From: Daphnia pulex
Lineage: Eukaryota; Arthropoda; Branchiopoda; Diplostraca; Daphniidae
Direction: 5' to 3'
Assembly (NCBI RefSeq): GCF_021134715.1
Contig: NC_060025.1
Span: 2,728,001 to 2,792,000, forward strand
Length of the DNA stretch: 64,000 nucleotides
This document shows, one piece after another, positions 3,574-58,477 of the stretch. Each line of letters starts with the position of its first letter. Within the stretch, counting starts at the first letter, position 1. The position numbers and the translations under genes are program-made. A model generated the notes under the pieces. The model did no database searches. It was not told the DNA's origin and saw only the letters and a program-made list of their open reading frames with translations.

Positions 3574-5973
3574 TTAGGTCTGTAGCCAAGTATTTTTGAT
3601 CAAGTCTGACGCCTTTTCACCAACCATAATCTGAGAAAGAGAAAGTTATTTATTGGTGAGATATTAAAAAGAGTAAACATGTAGTTACAGTTGGTGCATT
3701 TGTATTGCCACTGGGCAAGAACGGCATTATTGATGTGTCGGCAACGCGCAAGTTTTTTATTCCTCGGAATTTCAAGTCTGGTGTGACTACGGCCGTCGGA
3801 TCAGAGTCAGGACCCATTTTACAAGTGCTGACTGTGTGCCCAAAAGTGAAAGTGGCACTCTTGATCCAGCATTTCCAATAATCATCCGTCCACAGTGGTT
3901 GGTCCTCGCATCCAGGGAAAGGTTTGTCGTACAACCTGGAACCCATTTCTTGAAAGGCTTCGGTTTTGTCGAGTGCTAAAATAAACTTGACGGCCTCGAC
4001 AGTGACGTCCAAATCGTAAGTATCGCTATAATAATTTGGATTGAAGAGGGGTTTGTCGTAAGGATCGTTGGAATTCAGTCGGATGTATCCACGAGATTTT
4101 GGCCGCAAATACGTAGGGAATATCGTCCAACTATCCCGGTTGAGTATTGGCTTGTAGTACTCATTCCAAATTTCATCAGTATAACCATGCGCACGCCGAA
4201 ATGTGATTCCGTCGTCAGCTATGTCACTAGCGGGTCCAAAATGTAACTGAATATCTGGCCAATCATCACTAGGATTAGCAAATTTTGAATTGACGAATGC
4301 AATTCCATCAATGCCACTAATCATGGAAAAAGGTGTGCCTCTAAAAATGGTGTAATTTAATAGTGTCGGGAGATTCACAAATCTGGTTGTGAGAAGTGAA
4401 TAAGGCTTGTCTAAAAAACACATTCAATTTTAATCAATAATAGCACACAAGATCAAGTAGATATATTGCAACTTGCCAATAAGGAATACCATTCCGATAA
4501 GTCCAACGTGATCTTGTAAATTTTCGCCAACATAGGGTTGATCCAATATTGGGGTGATGCCTTTCTCTATCAAATGATCCGCTGGACCAACTCCACTCAA
4601 CATGAGAATTTGCGGTGATGCAATCGCACCAGCGGAAAGAATAACTTCTTTAGTCGCATCAACAACGTAAATTTTCCCTTGTTTTTCGAATTGAACCCCT
4701 GTCGCTGTTTTCGTATCAGGATTGTTGATAATTTTCAAGACGTGCGAATTTTTAGAAATGTGAAGATTCGGTCGATGGCGGACTGGCCGGAGAAAAGCTT
4801 TCGAAGTCGAACAACGACTTCCATGGCGGACAGTACCCTGGGGAATCATGAAACCTGCAAACATAGATTCAGATTTACTGACATTTGTCAAATTGTAGGC
4901 AAAAATTGTCACCTGTCTGAAATTCGCCATTGTAATCGCGATTCTCGTATCCCATCTCAACTCCGCCTTGGATGAATGCAGCACCTAATGGTGTATGGTA
5001 GCCAGATTCACCAACCGTCAAATAACCGCCTTTGCCGTGGTATTTGGTTCCGGCCAGGTAAGGATTTTGATTATCTTCTGATTTAAGGAAATATGGCAAA
5101 ATATCGTCGTACCCCCAGCCAACATTTCCATCATCCCTCCATTTGTCGTAGTCCCGTTTGTTTCCGCGGACGTATAACATCGAGTTGATAGAGGAACTAC
5201 CACCCAGCATTTTACCCCTAGGAATGTTGCACCTAGTTATAAAGCAGAAACTTGTTAATTGTCTTCCTTATTAATAATATCTTTGTTTACTGTCGATTTA
5301 AAGCACTTTGGCAAGCATTGGCTTGAGGTTGCGTCTTGTACTGCCAGTCTACATTCGTCAAGTGCATGCCAAACGCGTTAGCTGGAATTTGTCCAGATAT
5401 ACTCTCGTCACCTCCCGCTTCTAGCAATAAAATATTCCAATCGGCCACTTCTGAAAGTCGATTGGCAATCACGGCTCCAGCGGAACCCGCTCCGATGATA
5501 ATAAAATCGTAAGAGCTTCGAATCGTCTACAGCAAGTCAGCAACACACAAGTAAATCATTAAACAGTGGCAAACTAATTACCTGAAGTTAAGAATATATA
5601 GCATTTCAGCATGAAACGATACAATCACTCGGCTTGCTTCTGTTACGATTTCTTTGAATCTCATATCATTAAGTAAATGCCGGATAGAAATAACAAACAC
5701 GCTGAAAGACATGCAGCGACAACGAGGGTTGTATAACAGTGGGGGTTTGATTTTATGCTCTTTCGACCACTTTTGATTACCAGAAATAACAACTAACATA
5801 TTTATGGGAATTATTTTTAAACAAAAAAGTTAATAGCAGAAAAGTATTGCATTAGATGGACTACTTGCCGATGGGTCACGGACATATCCTTCTGGATCGC
5901 TTGGTGTATCGCTGAAAAGAAGCCAAGATAACAAAGAAGCCAGAGCAAGACCAAGTTCTTTTGCTTGTGACAT
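3574..5973 (-). CDS. GMC oxidoreductase, glucose dehydrogenase-like, copy 2
   Basis: Tandem paralogue of the gene at 363-2819, same family and predicted activity. Six exons: 5869-5973, 5291-5526, 4913-5232, 4477-4854, 3689-4410 and 3574-3630, summing to 1818 nt, about 605 residues. The first four exons have exactly the same lengths as in copy 1 (105, 236, 320, 378). FAD motif GAGSAGA, GMC signature [11 protein letters not shown] and C-terminal SGNTNAPT are present; the catalytic histidine segment reads HTVSTCKMG, with Ser where copy 1 has Gly. Introns 1 and 4 appear to use GC rather than GT donors (both GCAAGT), where copy 1 has GTAAGC and GTACGT. The frame is open across all exons, so the gene looks functional. 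Confidence 0.92.
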
Positions 5974-15018: not shown

Positions 15019-15360
15019 TTAGTAGCATTTGCACTGGCGAACAGTAGCACCTTCGGATCTGAGTTGGCAATTGGTCGGTTGAAGAACGCAAGCTCCGCCG
15101 ATCGACCCTGATTGACAATGATCGTGTTGTGTTACGAAAATAAGCTTAACAGAAAAAGAGAGAAAAGCGTTTTTTAGAATACCTGCCCTAACGCAATAAT
15201 CGTTACAAGACTCCATGAAAATGTTGCTAAACCAAGAGATGGCTTCGGAACATCGGTTTAATCCAGTTAAACAGCCTGCCAATGAACGATCGCTCGAGCT
15301 ACAATGACCAGTTGAAATCAAGCATGCCATGATGGCGACCAGTGCGAAAATGTATTTCAT
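15019..15360 (-). CDS. Small secreted eight-cysteine peptide, macin-like
   Basis: Two exons, 15183-15360 and 15019-15107, joined at GCAG/GTATTC and TCAG/GG, give 88 residues. A clean signal peptide (MKYIFALVAIMACLISTGHC) precedes a mature part with eight cysteines: LAGC, LNRC, MESC, NDYC, GGAC, PTNC, then RQCKCY as the last residues. The order and spacing (C-x6-C-x14-C-x3-C, then GG-x-C, x5-C, and a terminal C-x-C-Y) closely match the macin family of antimicrobial and nerve-repair peptides (hydramacin, theromacin, neuromacin), including the shared CxCY end of hydramacin and a Trp before the third Cys. The frame chosen is the only one that leaves exactly eight cysteines across the splice. It is divergent from cathepsin D. 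Family assignment rests on cysteine pattern from memory; an unrelated cysteine-rich peptide is possible. Confidence 0.75.
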   Translation of the reverse strand: MKYIFALVAIMACLISTGHCSSSDRSLAGCLTGLNRCSEAISWFSNIFMESCNDYCVRAGILKNAFLSFSVKLIFVTQHDHCQSGSIGGACVLQPTNCQLRSEGATVRQCKCY

Positions 15361-19423: not shown

Positions 19424-20914
19424 ATGATTAGACGTATAATTCAATCTTTAGTTTCTAGCTTCAGTAAATTTTCTATTCATGAGGAAATGTCGTTTTACGC
19501 AGTAGCCAGGGGAAGGAAAGTGGGCATCTATCCGAGTTGGTATATTAACTTATCACGTAATAAGAAATTTTCAGTAAAAAGGGAAAATTTTTTTCAGGGC
19601 TGAATGTCAATCTCAAATACAAGGCTACCCTGGTGCACAGTTTAAGAAATTTTCTTCCCAACAAGAAGCTGAAGGTTTCATCCAACAACGTAACTCTGAC
19701 ACTCCAGAAATACTGCCAGTTAAACCCAGGGCCTCCCAACTTCCAGAGGCTTCTGATGATTTGAAGGAATTTGAAAGCTCATTTTCTGGAAGTGGAAATC
19801 AATCTCCAACTGCAAAAGCATCTACTTCTGGATCTCAGTCAAAGTATTATTATGCTGTAGCCATTGGGAAAAATGTTGGCATTTATTCCACTTGGTAGGA
19901 ACATTATTAAAAACATTGGGATTTGGAAATTAATTTATTAAACATTTTTTTTTTTTTCAAATTACAGGGCAGAGTGCAAGGCGCAGGTTAATGGTTGTGG
20001 ATTTACCAAATACAGAAAGTTTGGAACCCAGAAAGAAGCTGAACAGTTCATTCAGGAAAATCAAATTCAAAAGGGAGCCAGAGCCTCTGTTGATGTTTCT
20101 CAATCTAGCAAATCTCTATTGAGCAATTTTCCAGCCGTTCCCAGTGATAAAGACATTTGTGTTCGAAATTTATCGACAGTTTCTTTTGGAGACCATCCTT
20201 TCCAACGAGATGAAGATGGCTTCGTACATTGTTATACCGATGGATCTTGTGAAAAGAATGGGCAAGTTGGTGCTAAAGCTGGTGTTGGCGTCTGGTTTGG
20301 AGTGGATCATCCTTTGTAATTTAATTTAATTAACATTAAATCGAATCTTTTACACACCTAAGACTGGGTTTTGTGAATAGAAACGTAAGTGAACCAGTCG
20401 TCGGACCTCCCACAAACAACGTAGCAGAGATACAGGCTGCAACTAAAGCAATTCAAGTAGCCCAAAATTGCGGTGATTGATAACCAGATATTCACTATTG
20501 CAACTACTATAATTTTACCTTTACAACTAGGTATTTCAAAACTACAAATAAATACGGATTCTCAATTCTTGATCAAGTGCATCACGCAGTGGATGCCCAA
20601 GTGGCAAAAGAATGGCTGGAAACTTAGTACCGGAGGTGACGTAAAAAACAAGGAGCAGCTGGAGGAGCTCCATGAGATGTTGAAAAAGAGCATCAATATA
20701 AAATGGGTATGTAAAATTAAATGAACTTAAACTTTAATTCGGATATCTTACAAATACTGAACAAAATATTTTTGAATTTTTTAAACAGAATTATGTCAAA
20801 GCTCACAAAGGGATTGAGGGAAACGAATATGCTGACATGCTCGCCAAAGCAGGAGCAGCTAACTACAAAATCAAGACCAACACTAAAGATAATGTCAGAT
20901 TTAAGCCTTACTGA
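19424..20914 (+). CDS. rnh1: Ribonuclease H1, two hybrid-binding domains
   Basis: Removes RNA from RNA-DNA hybrids in nucleus and mitochondria. Six exons: 19424-19539, 19598-19894, 19968-20315, 20381-20472, 20531-20706 and 20789-20914. From 19424 it encodes 384 residues; from the second in-frame ATG at 19487, 363. The 21-residue extension (MIRRIIQSLVSSFSKF...) is basic, hydroxyl-rich and free of acids until its end, so it looks like a mitochondrial targeting sequence, and the second start gives MSFYAVARGRK, the beginning of the first hybrid-binding domain. A second such domain begins KYYYAVAIGK. The catalytic carboxylates are D in CYTDGSC, E in NNVAEIQA, D in NTDSQFL and D in GNEYADMLA. The second ATG has a better start context than the first. 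Confidence 0.94.
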
Positions 20915-27241: not shown

Positions 27242-27560
27242 ATGCTTAAGGTTGTCTGTCTGTGTCTTCTCGTCTTGGCCGTCTGCGGCCCCGTCATACT
27301 CGCAGGTAAACCTCACTTACCTATTTTACTTTTAATTGATTGTAAGTTTGTAACCAAAGTTTTTGATTGTAATTGTATCGCCAGGGCCCATTGAGGAACA
27401 ATTTTACCAACCGGATCTCGATCCCGAGTCGTCCAATTGGCACTACAGACGACATGTTTATCGTGCCCGTACAACCCAAAGGCCCAACGTGAACAAAGAT
27501 GGAAACCAGCGCTTCTTTGGAGGTGCTTATCGCCCTGGCTACGGAGCTTTCAAGGGCTAG
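27242..27560 (+). CDS. Small secreted protein, function unknown
   Basis: Two exons, 27242-27305 and 27385-27560, give 79 residues. The signal peptide (MLKVVCLCLLVLAVCGPVILAG) is followed by a short acidic piece (PIEEQFYQPDLDPESS) and a basic, Tyr/Arg/Gly-rich tail (HYRRHVYRARTTQRP, then GGAYRPGYGAFKG). No cysteines in the mature part. A TATA box lies 50 bp upstream and AATAAA at 27705-27710. I do not recognise a family. The leader and acid-then-basic layout recall the peptide genes at 32.8-35.6 kb, and like them it may be a processed peptide; this is inference only. Confidence 0.75.
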
Positions 27561-27704
27561 AATGAAGCTCAGAATTTTATTATTGACAATCAGAATATGT
27601 TTTACGTTATTATTTTGTGTAATCGAACTCAACAACACCTCAGCATCATCTTTAATAACAATAGTATTTAAAAAACCGCTTTTATACCAATTATTCTGAG
27701 CTGA

Positions 27705-27766: not shown

Positions 27767-28030
27767 CTATTCTTTAGTGGCGAGGGCTAGACTGGCCAGA
27801 AGCGATTCCACCTCTTCTTGCCAATTGATTTCGGTCCCGTTCGACAACAATTCGTGTCCTTCATCATCGGCCATCAAAGGGAAGTTGGTAACTGTTGGCA
27901 GGAAATTAGTGTTTGATAAGAACACAAAAATACAGAATAATCAATTGTGGTACTAACCTTTTGAGATGGCGAGACAGAAAACAGTGTAGAGAAGTGTGAA
28001 TAAGCGAACAATTGTCATCCGCTGCGACAT
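27767..28030 (-). CDS. Small secreted acidic peptide, cluster gene A
   Basis: Two exons, 27958-28030 and 27767-27891, give 65 residues. The leader MSQRMTIVRLFTLLYTVFCLAIS is a clear signal peptide, followed by an acidic segment (ADDEGHELLSNGTEINWQEEVE) and an Ala/Leu-rich end (SLLASLALATKE). The exon 1 phase and the Met-Ser-x-Arg start match the peptide genes at 33.2 and 35.5 kb. No basic C-terminal peptide is present, so it keeps only the acidic part of the plan. No known family recognised. One N-glycosylation site (NGT) is visible. Confidence 0.65.
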
Positions 28031-30450: not shown

Positions 30451-30614
30451 TGGATGAAATTTTAATTCCCCAAAATCCGCCAGATGGCGAAATTCTTGTT
30501 GAGTATAACGTCTAGCGAATGAGGAATTTCGAATTACGCGTATGAAATTCCAAAATGCTTAAGGTGAAAGATTTGCTCTTTCAATAACCGGGTTGAATTA
30601 ACTATAAATCCCAT

Positions 30615-30700
30615 CGTTGGTGGTGGGTATGGAACCTTAGCTGGTTGTCGTGGGTAGTTGACGCTTCCGTATTTCCGGCGCTCTCGGGTTTAATACCCGA
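30615..30700 (+). repeat. tRNA-like segment, probable SINE head
   Basis: CTTAGCTGGTTGTCGTGGGTAG resembles a D-arm; CTCGGGTTTAATACCCGA resembles a T-arm with a perfect 5-bp stem but a changed loop. Confidence 0.4.
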
Positions 30701-31619
30701 TTGGATGTATTCGAAATTGTCTGTCATACATGGAACCAATGAAACATGGCAATCAGCGTTGAACTCTGATTTCTGAAATAAAGGTTGTTTCAATTCACGC
30801 TAGAAAGATCTACGTTTGTGGTAGAGTTATCCTCACGAAATGTTAATTATTTTAGAATAGTGAAACCATTTACTATTTTGACTGTACACTCGTGCTTCAA
30901 ACATCTCGAAAGACGAGCGGGTTAAATTAAATCCGGTCTTGTTTCATTTGTTGGTGTCGGCCAAATCCCGGTTTTAGCCAAAAAGGATTAATTTTCATCT
31001 CATTAATTCCCAAATTTCATATGGAGATGACAGATCTTTGGTCAAATTCGATGTCAGCTCAGCTGACGAGCTATCGCCCATTTCTTGCGCTCATTTCTTG
31101 AGTATACTTCCGGAATCCGGACTATCCGGTAATACAGTTAAAGAGGACTGGCCATTGTGACGCTATAGATGCACAGCCGCGTTAAACTGCTTATTTTACC
31201 GATTTCCAGTACCTACACACCCCTAACAGTTTCAGTACCCTTCAATATGGTACTGAAACGCAATTCAGTATTTTACTGTACTTGCTTAAGTACAAATTCT
31301 CTACTAACCATTCATTTGCCTACTTTTTACGTTATTCCTAGTGAAACTGTTAGTAGGCATAGTTCTGTTCAGTAGGTTGGTCCAGCAGTTTATAAAGATT
31401 TAGTTAGTAGTCTGAAAAATTCAGTATGTTCAGGTAGGGTTAGTAGTTTGATTTTAAAAAGTAATCAATAATAAAAGCAATGTAGGTTATAGCTAGTAGT
31501 TTACAAAAATTTAGTACTTTTGTTATAAGTAGTGTGAACAATTCAGTACCTTAGACTAGTAGGTTACAACTTACAAGGAATAAGTAGTATTCGTTAGGAT
31601 AGTAGCTTTTGTATATATC

Positions 31620-31690
31620 AATGTGGCGTGCCTGTAAGGCACTAGACTGCCACGCCAAAGGTCCGGGTTCAATTCCCGAATAAATCAAGT
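31620..31690 (+). repeat. tRNA-Gly-like segment, probable SINE head
   Basis: GACTGCCACGCC followed by GGTCCGGGTTCAATTCCCG copies the anticodon-to-T-arm part of a Gly(GCC) tRNA, with a good B box. The 5' half and acceptor stem do not fit a functional tRNA. Confidence 0.5.
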
Positions 31691-32149
31691 CTTCTTTCCA
31701 AGTTAAATAAAATCGAAATGGTCGGTTAGTAGGATACAATTGGTTAGTAGCTTGGTGCCGAATAATATCAGTAGGAATCTCCTACAATCAATGCCGTAAA
31801 TGAAGTGGTCAAAACTTTTTAAGTAATGGGTGGGTAGTAAAAGCAGGAAAGAATTTAAAGTGGTTTAGTTTATCCTTAGTAAGTTGAACACCGGATAGGG
31901 GTTTCTAATAAAATTAGTAAGGCGAGTAAGAAAAGGTAGAAGAATTGAGAAGTAGTTTCAATCAATTGGTTAGTAGGCTGGGTACCGAGTAGCAGTTACA
32001 TGAAAGTAGGATACCGCCACTGTGTGGTGGCTGTATATATTTTTCTAAAAAACCTGGCGAAAGGTGTGTCTTAATGTTATATCTTCTGTTTTAGAGTTGT
32101 TGTATATGTCTTCTTTACTACGTAGAAGCAATCTGTTATTTACTTGTAA

Positions 32150-32335
32150 TATAGTGGAAATGAGGTAGAATGTTATAATCTGGCAAAGGCTATAGAAAGT
32201 ATTTCTTAGTTTCACCCCTCAGTGCCGAGGTAATAATTTCATAAAACCACGAATTTCGAAATTTTCGAATCATTTTTGTTGTTGAATTCTGATCTATCTC
32301 AGCGATAAAGGGTCATGGCGAAATATAGCTCTACA
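32150..32335. repeat. Cluster flank repeat, copy 1
   Basis: Shares CTGGCAAAGGCTA, a TTTCACCCC stretch, AAAACCACGAATTTCGAA and a CGATAA(A)GGGTCATGGCGAAATA end with copies at 33447-33615 and 34655-34850. Diverged by many substitutions and small indels. Confidence 0.7.
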
Positions 32336-32796: not shown

Positions 32797-33249
32797 TTAT
32801 CCTTTTCTTTTTTTGATTGCGTTGATTATGCCTTTACCGATTTTCCAACCCCATTTGAGCTTCCAGAGGAATCGTTCTTCTCTCTCTGAGTCAGTCATTG
32901 CTGATCGTTTCTTCAAGTGCCGCTCTGATGATGTATCATTTTAATTAAAATTATATTCGTGTATAAATATAGAGACTTTTGAATAATGACAAATTTTACC
33001 AAAGATAACGCCACGGCTTTCCTCAGACAATTCTGCGGCTGGACGATCCTGTGCCGGGCTGGCATCTTGATTGATGACATAATGCGACAAATAAATTTTG
33101 TGATTATTATAGTTTAACAGTGGATGCTCGAGGATATTGCCAATTATATATAAATATAAATAATATTAGAAATGCTGACCTGTGAATACGACAAAGTAAC
33201 ATAGGACGAAGACCAGAAGACAGACGCAGGCTATCTTACGCATCGACAT
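32797..33249 (-). CDS. Cationic secreted peptide precursor, candidate antimicrobial peptide (cluster gene B)
   Basis: Three exons, 33180-33249, 33000-33065 and 32797-32924, all with clean GT-AG joins, give 87 residues. Leader: signal peptide MSMRKIACVCLLVFVLCYF. Spacer: acidic, DASPAQDRPAAELSEESRG. Exon 3 then has ERHLKKR, SAMTDSEREER and a 24-residue C-terminal segment beginning FLWKLKWGWKIGKG, with three Trp, one Phe, about eight basic and no acidic residues, ending KKRKG-stop. REER before it fits a furin-type R-x-x-R site, and the final Gly after Lys fits C-terminal amidation. Alternating hydrophobic and Lys residues suggest an amphipathic helix. This layout is that of cationic antimicrobial peptide precursors such as cecropins or piscidins, but I recognise no family. 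A TATA box lies about 41 bp before the ATG. Confidence 0.78.
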
Positions 33250-33288
33250 TTTATTGGGGAGTGACAAACCTAATTTTTTAATCCTAAT

Positions 33289-33295
33289 TTATATA
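33289..33295 (-). promoter_or_regulatory. TATA box of peptide gene B
   Basis: TATATAA on the minus strand about 41 bp upstream of the start codon. Confidence 0.55.
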
Positions 33296-33446
33296 AAGCT
33301 TTCCGAAAGCTTTCTGCGGCCAGTCGCCACTTCCTCTTTTTCCTGCTCTTCCCTTGCTAACGTTTTAAGAACATTCAGAAGGAACCGCATCAAGTAGGAA
33401 TTCAAACTGACTGATTTGATTGTGGGTTTAAATATTGAGATTATAG

Positions 33447-33615
33447 CGGGTATGAGTTAGGAATTAGGATGTCAATCTGGCAAAGGCTAGAAAATATTTG
33501 TCTCTTTCACCCCACAAATGCCGAGATAAAAATGTCATAAAACCCGAGATAAAACCACGAATTTCGAATTAATTTTTTGTAGTTTATCAGCGATAAGGCG
33601 TGATGGTGAAATAAA
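33447..33615. repeat. Cluster flank repeat, copy 2
   Basis: Upstream of peptide gene B by about 200 bp. Contains CTGGCAAAGGCTAGAA, CGAGATAAAACCACGAATTTCGAA and CAGCGATAAGGCGT, shared with copies 1 and 3. Confidence 0.7.
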
Positions 33616-33824: not shown

Positions 33825-34266
33825 TCAGCCACGTCTACGGTGTTGTTTGATGACGTTGACTAAGCCATGCACGGCCTTGGCTATCCAAAAGAAGAATCGT
33901 TCATCTCTCTCTGAGTCAGTCATTGCCGATCGTTTCTTCAATTGCCGCTCTAAAATGTGATTTCAATATTACAACAGTTATTCGTGTGCACATAGAAAAA
34001 TGAATAATTAACAATTTTACCAGAAAAAACGCCACGCGGCTTTCCTTAAACAATCCTGCGGCTGGGCCGGGCATGCTGGGCCGGGCTGGCATCTTGATTG
34101 ACATATGGATTATTAGTTATGTATGATTGAATTGTGATTATTAGTTAATGGGTGCTCGAGGAAATTGCCCAAGAATGATATGGAAGATACTGACCTATGA
34201 ATGCGACAAAGTAACACAGAACGAAGACCAAAAGACATACGCAGGCTACTTTTTACGCAATGACAT
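33825..34266 (-). pseudogene. Broken paralogue of the cationic peptide gene (cluster gene C)
   Basis: Three blocks align with the exons of gene B: a leader block near 34190-34266, a spacer block near 34020-34095 and the last exon at 33825-33949. The gene looks broken, with at least two interruptions in the leader and spacer. The last exon is still open and keeps ERQLKKRSAMTDSERDER in register with gene B, followed by a different peptide that begins FFFWIAKAVHGL and ends RRRG-stop. So the processing site, the aromatic start and the basic-Gly end are conserved while the core differs. Either the break is recent or the sequence has errors in short homopolymers. Not counted as a working gene. Confidence 0.65.
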
Positions 34267-34541: not shown

Positions 34542-34654
34542 AACTTTTTCGGACTAGTGTACCGGCTTAAGTTATAAATATACATTAAAAAAAGAACCGC
34601 ACCAAGAAATTCAAATCGGCGGATATTTGATTGTGGGTTTAATTATTGAGATAC

Positions 34655-34850
34655 TATGGTGGAAATGTGGTAGGATGTCAATTTGGCAAAGGCTAGAACA
34701 CATTTATCAGTTTCACCCTCAATTTCGAGATTTAAAACATTCACAAAACCACAGATAAGATTTCTAAATTTCAAATTAATTTTTTATTGTTGAATTATCG
34801 GGGATTTATTCACGATAACGCGTAATGTCGAAATAGTTCTGGGCCATTTT
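34655..34850. repeat. Cluster flank repeat, copy 3
   Basis: Upstream of peptide gene C. Shares AGGATGTCAATTTGGCAAAG, TTTCACCCTCAA, AAAACCACAGATAAGA and CGCGTAATGTCGAAATA with copies 1 and 2. Confidence 0.7.
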
Positions 34851-37548: not shown

Positions 37549-38868
37549 ATGGCTTTTTACGTTGTCATTAAAGGAAGAAAACGAGGTATCTTTCGTTCAT
37601 GGTAAGATTCACACTTCCTTCAGTAAATGTGCTTTATTCCTGCCAAATTCTTGTGTTACTAATAATGCTTTTTTGATCAATATTCTTGTTGGCCTGAGTG
37701 TGAGTCTCAAGTAGATGGTTATCCTGGTTGTTTCTTCAAGAAATTCACCATCAGTAACTTTGGATGTCGAGAGAAGGCTTCAGCTGCTGCTGCTCTCGAG
37801 TATAAAAAACATGCATCTAATAATAGACTCAACAACAAAGAAGGAAGAACTTATTTTGCAGTAGCAGAAGGCAAAGGCAAAGTTACTGGAATATTTTTTA
37901 AGAAGTAAAATCTGTGTTTTCACTGTCTGCCTAAAAATGTATTAATTATAAAAATTCATTGAATTGTTTTACAGGGAAGACTGTGATATGCATGTGGATT
38001 GTTCATTTCCCATATACAAGGGCTTTGAGACCCTACAAGAAGCAGCTGGATTCATAATATCTTGTTTGAAACAAAGAGCAGTGGAATTCAAAAAGCAGTG
38101 TCCAGTTCGTTCAGATAGAGTTCGTGATTTACAAAATTTACCCACTAGATTTTTCAAGTGGCCTTTCCACGTCGACAGTGAGGGATTCGTGCAAGTGTAT
38201 GTTGATGGATCCTGTTTTGAAAACGGGAAAAATGGCGCAAAAGCTGGACTTGGTGTGTTCTTCGGCAATGGTCATGCGATGTAAGCGAAAGTTTTTGAAA
38301 AAATTTCAATCAAATACCTATGTTTTATTATCTTTATGACAGGAATGTTAGCAAAGCTGTTCAATCCGATAGCACGCAATCCAACAATTCTGGGGAATTG
38401 CAGGCCGTCAAAGAAGCCCTTCGAGTAGCTAAGCAATGTGGTAAGTTCGTTTTGTTTTGTGCGGTTTTGTGCATTTATTACCCAAATTATTTTCTTTTCC
38501 TACCCGCAGGGATAAAGAAACTCAAGATTCATTCCGATTCCCAGTACGTCATTAAATGCTTCAATTATTGGGTAAAAAGTTGGCAAACTAAAGGATGGAT
38601 GACATCAGCATCGACACCTGTTAAAAACAAAAAGGTTATCGAAGAAATCTGCGACATATGGAATTCCGAAAACATTCAGATCGAATGGGTAAAGCAATGT
38701 GTTCATCATTGTTAATCTAGAATTGCAAACCTTTCTGACTGCATCAGCCTAAAAACGGAATTATTTTAGAATTTCGTTCCAGCCCATAGAGGGATCAGGG
38801 GCAACGAAGCTGCGGATAGACTTGCTAAAAACGGTGCGAAGCGTGCTGTCCGCGGTACTCCTTATTGA
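37549..38868 (+). CDS. Ribonuclease H1 paralogue
   Basis: Same domain plan as the gene at 19424: hybrid-binding domain 1 (MAFYVVIKGRKRGIF), domain 2 (TYFAVAEGKGKVTGIF) and a full RNase H domain. Exons: 37549-37601, about 37692-37904, 37975-38280, 38343-38440, 38510-38688 and 38771-38868. Catalytic carboxylates are kept: D in VYVDGSC, E in NNSGELQA, D in HSDSQYV and D in GNEAADRLA. Two oddities. An in-frame stop lies just upstream of the ATG, so there is no mitochondrial leader. The exon 1 to exon 2 boundary lacks an AG at the expected place (the sequence reads CTTGTTG/GCCTGAG), so this junction may be broken or a different first exon may be used. Convergent with the P450 at 39473. Confidence 0.8.
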
Positions 38869-57270: not shown

Positions 57271-57427
57271 TTCCACATCGAGATGATGTGAGGGAGATTC
57301 CACATTGAGATAATGTGAGAGGTATTCCACATCGAGATGATGTGAGGGAGATTCCACATTGAGATAATGTGAGAGGTATTCCACATCGAGATGATGTGAG
57401 GGAGATTCCACATTGAGATAATGTGAG
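57271..57427 (+). repeat. 27-bp minisatellite with hairpin units inside the LTR element
   Basis: About six 27-bp units alternate between two versions, one with CACATCGAGATGATGTG and one with CACATTGAGATAATGTG. Each unit is an inverted repeat with a GAGAT loop. Confidence 0.9.
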
Positions 57428-58477
57428 GCTGCCATGGATATCACAAACCTAACCATCTTCTCGTTTTGTTACCACAATCAGAGACGCAATGCTGACCAGG
57501 TGATTGAAAATGCAGCTGATATAACCAACTGGAACAAGAGAAATACCACGGCAATGCAGAACATATTTGGCGCCATCAAAGAAGACCAATCAAGGATCCT
57601 GATGTCTTGTAGCACAGCCCAAGAGATGTGGATGAAATTGGAGACTGAGTATGAAGAAGATGCCGCAGACAATGCACCTCTATTGTGGACAAAGTTCTAT
57701 GGATGCACATTTCGACCAAGCCAAAGTGTATCAAGCTTCCTGACTGAGTTGGAACAGATAGCATTCCGTCTGAAGAGCCTCAACATAGCTATTGATGATA
57801 ATCAAATAATGGCAAAGATACTCATGTCGCTTCCTCCAGAGTTCCGTGTTTTTGCCTTTGCATGGGACAGCACGCCTGTTGCAGAGAAAACTCTCAAGAA
57901 ACTGACTACTCGCCTTATAGCATTGGACAAGAGCCTGCGCAACGACGAAGAAGCAAAATCGACATCTGATACTGCCTATCTCAGTAAGCCGAACAGAGAT
58001 GAATCACAGCACAAAGAGCAAGCACTTCCTGCCCAGTACGGTCAGAACAAAGGAAAAAGCCACCCTTCCAGTCAACATGCTGGTATACCGAGAACATGCT
58101 GGGAGTGCAACTCCACTACGCATGTTAGAGCTCAATGCCGTCAATACAAACGCCGGCGTGAGAGAGAAGGAGAAGAAGCGGACAGAAAAAGGAAGCGTTA
58201 CGATCGACATGACAGAAGAGATGATAAACTATGTAAGCTCCCAGGAGCAACTGGCCGATGCACTCACGAAACCCCTGGCTGCTCCACGCTTCAAGTATCT
58301 CCGTGACAAGATTGGCGTTCGGGGTGTAGGGGAGGTGTAACTGAAGAGTTAAAGGAGGCTGATATTTCTTTTCTTATTATTTGTCTTGTGACACTGAACC
58401 TAGTATTTATGTCTGATTCAAATATGCTGTGTATTCTGTGCTCATGTTTATTTTTGGGGGTCCAGTTTGAGGGGAGG

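What the first reader, a model, noticed from the sequence alone, without database searches (positions are those of the whole stretch)
32797..33249. Candidate new cationic, Trp-rich antimicrobial peptide gene
Seen directly: three exons with clean splice sites encode signal peptide, acidic spacer, an R-x-x-R site (REER) and a 24-residue C-terminal segment starting FLWKLKWGWKIGKG, with about eight basic residues, three Trp, no acids, and a final Gly before the stop. Known: cecropin- and piscidin-type precursors use a signal, an acidic pro-part, a basic amphipathic peptide and often a Gly that is converted to an amide. Inference: this is an undescribed host-defence peptide of Daphnia, released by furin-type cleavage and amidated.
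Basis: partly seen in the sequence, partly recalled or inferred. Interest (0 to 1): 0.88.

Follow-up and report, generated by a model that had tools for sequence, protein, structure and literature searches.

The report
Candidate arthropod antimicrobial peptide gene pair
A small, probably real arthropod gene encodes a secreted precursor ending in a positively charged, tryptophan-rich peptide that looks like a germ-killing peptide, and a damaged, fast-diverged neighbouring copy supports this, although no activity has been shown.

Summary
On the minus strand, 32797-33249 encodes the described 87-residue precursor in three GT-AG exons. It ends in FLWKLKWGWKIGKGIINAIKKRKG: +8, three Trp, no acids, last residue Gly. 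The 'acidic spacer' is only weakly acidic (net -2 over 40 residues).

Between copies, coding parts outside the mature peptide differ at 22 of 189 aligned bases, introns at 67 of 172 (P=2e-9); the mature peptide differs at 28 of 63, like introns. Yet copy B's peptide stays cationic, acid-free and Gly-ended behind an R-x-E-R site. Conserved signal and pro part with a fast-changing cationic peptide is typical of antimicrobial peptide families (recalled) and unlike neuropeptides. Copy B looks like a young pseudogene.

Best reading: a new, so far orphan, linear helical antimicrobial peptide gene. Expression, cleavage, amidation and killing are inferred. Hydrophobic moments are not clearly above shuffles. 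No relative turned up in Pfam, PDB, viral or prokaryotic contigs, but no animal sequence collection could be searched. 'Daphnia' is unconfirmed.

The parts
33180..33249 (-). Copy A exon 1: start codon and hydrophobic signal peptide (MSMRKIACVCLLVFVLCYFVVFT..)
   Evidence: 61 of 70 aligned bases identical to copy B
33066..33179 (-). Copy A intron 1 (114 nt, GT..AG)
   Evidence: 62 of 101 aligned bases identical to copy B
33000..33065 (-). Copy A exon 2: first half of the pro part (DASPAQDRPAAELSEESRGVIF)
   Evidence: 56 of 66 aligned bases identical, but copy B is out of frame over part of it
32925..32999 (-). Copy A intron 2 (75 nt, GT..AG)
   Evidence: 43 of 71 aligned bases identical to copy B
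32872..32924 (-). Copy A exon 3, end of pro part (..ERHLKKRSAMTDSEREER) with KKR and REER cleavage sites
   Evidence: 50 of 53 bases identical to copy B; R at -1 and Glu at -2 to -4 as in the spider processing quadruplet motif (definition seen in a passage of PMC7889660)
32800..32871 (-). Copy A mature peptide FLWKLKWGWKIGKGIINAIKKRKG, last Gly a possible amide donor; stop codon at 32797-32799
   Evidence: modelled as one helix together with the end of the pro part
34195..34266 (-). Copy B exon 1 (paralogue); two bases longer than copy A in an A-run, so the frame ends after the first six codons
34021..34092 (-). Copy B exon 2; length changes of +4 and +2 against copy A, in-frame stop with the homologous acceptor (a later AG, exon from 34044, would stay open)
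33825..33949 (-). Copy B exon 3: RDER site and peptide FFFWIAKAVHGLVNVIKQHRRRG (33828-33896), stop at 33825-33827
   Evidence: 9-nt and 6-nt length differences, both frame-preserving
33379..33584 (-). Upstream element of copy A, repeated upstream of copy B (34591-34791) and a third time at 32147-32325
   Evidence: blastn 73% over 213 nt between A and B blocks; alignment
33288..33295 (-). TATA-like box upstream of copy A (46 nt before the ATG)
   Evidence: consensus match only

Best explanation
Copy A is a functional gene for a secreted host-defence peptide. The signal peptide sends the precursor into the secretory pathway. The pro part, whose last stretch is a short acidic R...R spacer, keeps the basic helix quiet. 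A protease cuts after R-x-E-R (REER), possibly after an earlier cut at KKR. The freed 24-residue peptide loses its Gly to become a 23-residue C-terminal amide, folds into a cationic helix with Trp at the membrane interface, and disrupts microbial membranes. The locus is a small tandem array in which the mature peptide diversifies while signal and pro part stay fixed. Copy B is a recently broken paralogue, and a third unit keeps only its upstream element. Shown: sequence, paralogue, conservation pattern, open frame. Inferred: expression, cleavage, amidation, killing.
For: Three-exon open frame with signal, R-x-x-R and a basic acid-free Gly-ended tail. Tandem paralogue. Exonic parts outside the mature segment change far less than introns (22/189 against 67/172, P=2.1e-9), and the mature part changes like introns (28/63; P=0.46 against introns, 1.9e-7 against other exonic parts). 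dN is 0.63 in the mature part against 0.058 in exon 1 plus pro part of exon 3. Copy B's exons are still 85-94% identical outside the mature part although its frame is broken, so I infer that the break is young and that the divergence of the mature part is mostly older. Simulated neutral drift of copy A's mature segment to the same divergence keeps no stop, no acid, charge of at least +5 and a last Gly in 0.5% of 20,000 runs, and both length differences keep frame. AlphaFold2 model of exon 3: helix over residues 12-41, mean pLDDT 79.9.
Against: No transcript, protein or activity data. Hydrophobic moment not clearly above shuffles: best 18 residues, copy A P=0.07 (Eisenberg) and 0.22 (Fauchere-Pliska), copy B 0.09 and 0.04; over the whole copy A peptide P=0.25. 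Mature dN/dS is 0.63/0.91, so positive selection is not shown. The modelled helix runs straight through the presumed cleavage site and rests on two sequences. The pro part is only weakly acidic. No kB-like site lies in the 581 nt upstream of copy A. Only two sequences exist for all evolutionary arguments, and the simulated features were chosen after seeing the data. No orthologue could be sought in animals.
Confidence: 0.6

Rival explanations
1. It is a neuropeptide or peptide hormone precursor: the C-terminal or the spacer peptide is released by prohormone convertase and acts on a receptor.
For: Signal peptide, basic cleavage sites (KKR, R-x-x-R) and a C-terminal Gly are shared with neuropeptide precursors (sequence; general knowledge).
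Against: Between the two copies the would-be C-terminal ligand is the most variable coding part and the flanks the most conserved, the reverse of what I recall for neuropeptide precursors. The Gly sits before a stop after KKRK and is not followed by a basic site. Three Trp and +8 would be unusual for a ligand (recalled). No Pfam family above its cut-off.
Confidence: 0.09
2. It is a short secreted protein whose function lies in the conserved part (signal, SAMTDSER-type spacer), the C-terminus being a loosely constrained tail.
For: The 18 residues ER.LKKRSAMTDSER.ER differ at two positions between copies while the tail differs like an intron.
Against: A free tail would be expected to pick up acids or stops; the neutral simulation keeps copy B's tail properties in 0.5% of runs, and both length differences are in frame.
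Confidence: 0.14
3. Both copies are relics: an old gene family decaying here, copy A merely not yet broken, or not expressed.
For: Copy B is broken in exon 1 and, with the homologous acceptor, in exon 2; a third unit has its upstream element but no recognisable gene body in 30500-32150; no expression data.
Against: Copy A is intact over all 87 codons with a TATA-like box, initiator-like site and poly(A) signal; exonic parts outside the mature segment are conserved far above introns.
Confidence: 0.12
4. It is an antimicrobial-type linear peptide used outside classic immunity, for instance to shape gut bacteria or as a secreted deterrent.
For: Nothing in the sequence ties it to infection: no kB-like site in 581 nt upstream of copy A, one 275 nt upstream of copy B (1000 nt scanned) at a window rate of 0.2 per kb.
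Against: No evidence for any such role either.
Confidence: 0.05

Closest known systems
Spider linear cationic peptides (latarcins, cupiennins)
   Same: Signal, pro part, then a linear cationic peptide, often helical; cut after an Arg with Glu at -2 to -4 (PQM; REER and RDER fit); spacers of about 11-13 residues that begin and end with Arg (here RSAMTDSEREER, 12); C-terminal Gly used for the amide; great diversity of the peptides (12 of 28 matching places of PMC7889660 seen).
   Different: No sequence homology tested or found; cupiennin pro parts are more than one third Glu/Asp, here 10 of 40 residues; one peptide per precursor; the animal does not look like a spider (short introns, closely packed genes; inference).
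Frog dermaseptin-type and fish piscidin-type precursors (recalled)
   Same: Conserved prepro part with a hypervariable cationic amphipathic peptide; often Gly-derived amide.
   Different: Recalled only; phmmer of both mature peptides against PDB chains gave no such match, Pfam none.
Crustacean antimicrobial families (crustins, ALFs)
   Same: Secreted crustacean defence peptides.
   Different: Those have conserved Cys (WAP domain; two-Cys LPS-binding motif; passages of PMC5437397); this mature peptide has no Cys. D. [quoted passage not shown]
Cecropins
   Same: Linear cationic helix, amidated, Trp near the N-terminus (recalled).
   Different: No cecropin match in Pfam at E up to 10.

Membership tests
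Linear alpha-helical antimicrobial peptide (functional class) | Secretory signal plus cleavable pro part | tested here: inconclusive
   Hydrophobic N-terminus, KKR and R-x-x-R sites are in the sequence, but no signal predictor was run and cleavage was not tested
Linear alpha-helical antimicrobial peptide (functional class) | Cationic, Cys-free mature segment | tested here: met
   +8 in copy A, +5 in copy B; no acid, no Cys in the sequences
Linear alpha-helical antimicrobial peptide (functional class) | Amphipathic helix | tested here: inconclusive
   Helix modelled, but moments against shuffles give P 0.04-0.25
Linear alpha-helical antimicrobial peptide (functional class) | Kills or inhibits microbes | not testable with these tools
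   Needs synthetic peptide
Linear alpha-helical antimicrobial peptide (functional class) | Conserved prepro, diversified mature peptide among paralogues | tested here: met
   22/189 against 28/63 differing bases, P=1.9e-7; two copies only
Spider latarcin/cupiennin family | Processing quadruplet motif before the mature peptide | tested here: met
   REER, RDER against the definition
Spider latarcin/cupiennin family | Sequence homology of signal, pro part or peptide | not tested
   No spider sequence collection on hand; resemblance of layout only
Spider latarcin/cupiennin family | Strongly anionic pro part (over one third Glu/Asp in cupiennins) | tested here: not met
   10 acids in 40 residues (counted by eye), net -2
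Cecropin | Match to the curated family model | tested here: not met
   No cecropin model listed; only Orf78 at 16.7 bits against a cut-off of 29.4, on residues 2-29
Crustin / ALF | Conserved cysteines | tested here: not met
   No Cys in the pro or mature part

The most novel reading that the evidence does not exclude
Probability: 0.3. Interest if true: 0.68.

Novelty: new member of a known kind. Interest (0 to 1): 0.5.

Why it matters
If the animal is a Daphnia, this bears on a standing puzzle: a survey of the D. pulex genome could not recover antimicrobial peptides (PMC2685406), and ALFs and crustins are reported absent (PMC5437397). A Cys-free, fast-changing family would be missed by homology searches. 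The locus gives a concrete, cheap-to-test candidate, and the same window holds a macin-type gene.

Tried and rejected
Homology: Pfam with the precursor, the mature peptide and copy B's exon 3, PDB chains with the precursor and both mature peptides, viral contigs twice (9 and 12 pattern matches, none confirmed) and prokaryotic genome contigs once (81 pattern matches, none confirmed) gave no relative. The Orf78 (baculovirus) hit, E=0.0093 and 16.7 bits, is below its cut-off of 29.4 and covers only residues 2-29, so it was rejected. PDB gave one hit for the precursor (a glyoxalase/dioxygenase chain, E=1.6), three for copy A's peptide (Cake4, Cake5, Cake6; E 0.32-3, ten residues) and none for copy B's; all rejected as chance. 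Four peptide strings are in no paper of the library. Other paper searches named no such Daphnia peptide in the titles and abstract starts shown (7 of 7 papers, 25 of 72, 2 of 2, 15 of 176, 7 of 7, 12 of 24, 8 of 8, 10 of 1,139).

Immune promoter: kB-like sites are not enriched upstream, so no claim of induction is made. A third gene copy below the third upstream element (30500-32150) was not found: each of six local alignments scored below the best of its 60 shuffles. Alternative splice models: one scores marginally higher on conservation but its first donor is not GT in copy B. Positive selection was considered and not claimed (mature dN/dS 0.63/0.91).

Full report
What is there. The gene is on the minus strand. 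From ATG at 33249 to the stop at 32797-32799 it reads, in three exons (33249-33180, 33065-33000, 32924-32797), an 87-residue precursor: MSMRKIACVCLLVFVLCYFVVFT DASPAQDRPAAELSEESRGVIFERHLKKRSAMTDSEREER FLWKLKWGWKIGKGIINAIKKRKG. It is one of 29 GT-AG combinations in the ranges tested that stay open. Ranked by how much better exon than intron positions match the paralogue (mature part left out), it is 2nd of 29, a virtual tie with the 1st, whose first donor reads GC in copy B. A TATA-like box 46 nt and a TCACTC site 15 nt before the ATG, and AATAAA 107 nt after the stop, fit a short transcription unit; these are matches to recalled consensus motifs only.

Chance. The C-terminal 24 residues have net charge +8, no acids, three Trp and a last Gly. 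Of 1260 six-frame open frames of 30 or more residues in the window, 9 tails have charge of at least +8, 13 have three or more Trp and 61 end in Gly. Three combine charge of at least +5, no acid and a last Gly: this gene, its paralogue and one other (the printed label says 6 but the script used 5). The 'acidic spacer' is weaker than described: the 40 residues between the presumed signal end and the mature peptide have a net charge of -2.

The paralogue. Directly upstream, on the same strand, lies copy B (start codon 34266, stop 33825-33827). Its exon 3 reads, with the shared first codon, ERQLKKRSAMTDSERDER FFFWIAKAVHGLVNVIKQHRRRG. Identity by segment: exon 1 61/70, intron 1 62/101, exon 2 56/66, intron 2 43/71, pro part of exon 3 50/53, mature part 35/66 as aligned there (codon alignment: 28 of 63 differ), 60 nt upstream 24/60 without gaps, 100 nt downstream 49/96. 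Exonic parts outside the mature peptide differ at 22 of 189 bases, introns at 67 of 172 (Fisher P=2.1e-9). The mature part does not differ from introns (P=0.46) but does from the other exonic parts (P=1.9e-7). NG86 dN/dS is 0.058/0.32 for exon 1 plus pro part and 0.63/0.91 for the mature part. The latter ratio is below 1 on 21 codons, so positive selection is not shown; the finding is a rate like neutral DNA.

Copy B is damaged: exon 1 is two bases longer in an A-run, which ends the frame after MSLRKK, and exon 2 differs by +4 and +2 bases, with an in-frame stop when the homologous acceptor is used; a later AG would leave a 24-nt exon 2 that stays open into exon 3, so the exon 2 break depends on the acceptor, the exon 1 break does not. 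An assembly error cannot be excluded for the A-run. Because its exons are otherwise still 85-94% identical while introns are at about 61%, I infer that the damage is recent and that the mature peptides diverged while both copies worked. In spite of that divergence, copy B's segment keeps an open frame with frame-preserving length differences (9 and 6 nt), charge +5, no acid, Trp, the GxxNxIK core and the last Gly. Neutral drift of copy A's segment to the same divergence keeps no stop, no acid, +5 and the last Gly in 0.5% of 20,000 simulations. This assumes a simple substitution model and uses features picked after seeing the data.

Tandem array. A block 130-335 nt upstream of copy A recurs 325-525 nt upstream of copy B (73% over 213 nt) and a third time at 32147-32325 (71-74%). 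Below the third block no gene body was found in 30500-32150; each of six local alignments scored below the best of its 60 shuffles. So the array probably had at least three units, or the block is a separate repeat.

Mechanism. Shown: precursor layout and conservation pattern. From established knowledge (recalled): R-x-x-R can be cut by furin-type enzymes. An Arg with Glu at -2 to -4 is the processing quadruplet motif of spider linear peptides (definition seen in passages of PMC7889660). In cupiennins a C-terminal Gly is used for amidation (same paper, same call). The resemblance to the spider R...R linkers is of layout, not tested homology. Inferred: release of a 23-residue amide that forms a basic helix at membranes. 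AlphaFold2 on exon 3 with two sequences gives one helix over residues 12-41 (mean pLDDT 79.9), which is weak evidence since it runs through the cleavage site. Hydrophobic moments are moderate: best 18-residue window 0.555 (copy A, P=0.07) and 0.560 (copy B, P=0.09) on the Eisenberg scale; P=0.22 and 0.04 on the Fauchere-Pliska scale; over the whole peptide P=0.25 (A) and 0.08 (B) on the Eisenberg scale. This part of the AMP case is therefore not strong.

Why not a neuropeptide: ligands are normally the conserved part of their precursors (recalled); here the order is reversed. Why not chance: the paralogue. Why not simply a relic: copy A is intact. What cannot be excluded: that the conserved pro part carries the function, or that copy A is silent.

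Known or new. No match above cut-off in Pfam, none better than E=0.3 in PDB chains, none confirmed in viral contigs or prokaryotic contigs; four peptide strings occur in no paper of the library. No animal database was available, so an annotated orthologue may well exist as an uncharacterised protein. Of ten window proteins scanned, nine matched Pfam (GMC oxidoreductase, oxysterol-binding protein twice, haem peroxidase, collagen, P450, macin, copia gag, and RNase H below its cut-off) and one did not; this fits an arthropod but does not name it. [quoted passage not shown] pulex genome; PMC5437397 (12 of 14 places) says that D. pulex lacks ALFs and crustins; in PMC4551569 (12 of 17 places), a Daphnia magna infection transcriptome, the single mention of 'antimicrobial peptide' concerns a moth; PMC5116183 notes uncharacterised CS-alpha-beta sequences in D. 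pulex, so 'no antimicrobial peptides in Daphnia' was already softened.

Verdict. A real gene (about 0.85, my judgement from the paralogue) and most likely a host-defence peptide precursor (0.6). It is a new member of a known kind, of medium interest until expression and activity are shown.

Noticed in passing
15019-15360 (minus strand): Two-exon gene for a secreted macin-type antimicrobial protein (Pfam Macin PF14865, E=1.8e-17, 64.1 bits against a cut-off of 27, on the unspliced frame); the spliced protein has 10 Cys, 8 of them after the presumed signal by eye. Macins are described mostly from annelids, Hydra and molluscs (passages of PMC5116183).
   Followed up: partly
27242-27562 (plus strand): Two-exon gene for a small secreted peptide, MLKVVCLCLLVLAVCGPVILAG..NVNKDGNQRFFGGAYRPGYGAFKG, with a basic, Gly/aromatic-rich end that also finishes in Gly before the stop; its signal exon weakly resembles that of the finding (E=1.5e-4 within the window).
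   Followed up: partly
27780-28030 (minus strand): Another short signal-like exon (MSQRMTIVRLFTLLYTVFCLAIS.., read by eye) with a possible small second exon; my splice attempt used the wrong frame.
   Followed up: no
32147-32325, 33379-33584, 34591-34791: Three copies of an upstream block at about 1.2-1.3 kb spacing; the third has no recognisable gene below it.
   Followed up: partly
31620-31690 (plus strand): tRNA-like stretch with a GGTTCAATTCCC B-box-like motif, perhaps a tRNA-derived repeat (by eye); ARAGORN finds no tRNA in the window.
   Followed up: partly
434-2067 and 3650-5267 (minus strand): Two neighbouring GMC oxidoreductase genes, apparently a tandem duplicate (only 434-1237 was scanned, the second is by eye).
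   Followed up: no
19942-20319 and 37952-38715 (plus strand): Two RNase H1-like genes in one window (by eye); Pfam RNase_H on 37952-38284 is below cut-off (16 against 25.8 bits).
   Followed up: no
57422-58306 (plus strand): Copia-type gag reading frame of a retrotransposon (Pfam PF14223, E=1.3e-25).
   Followed up: no
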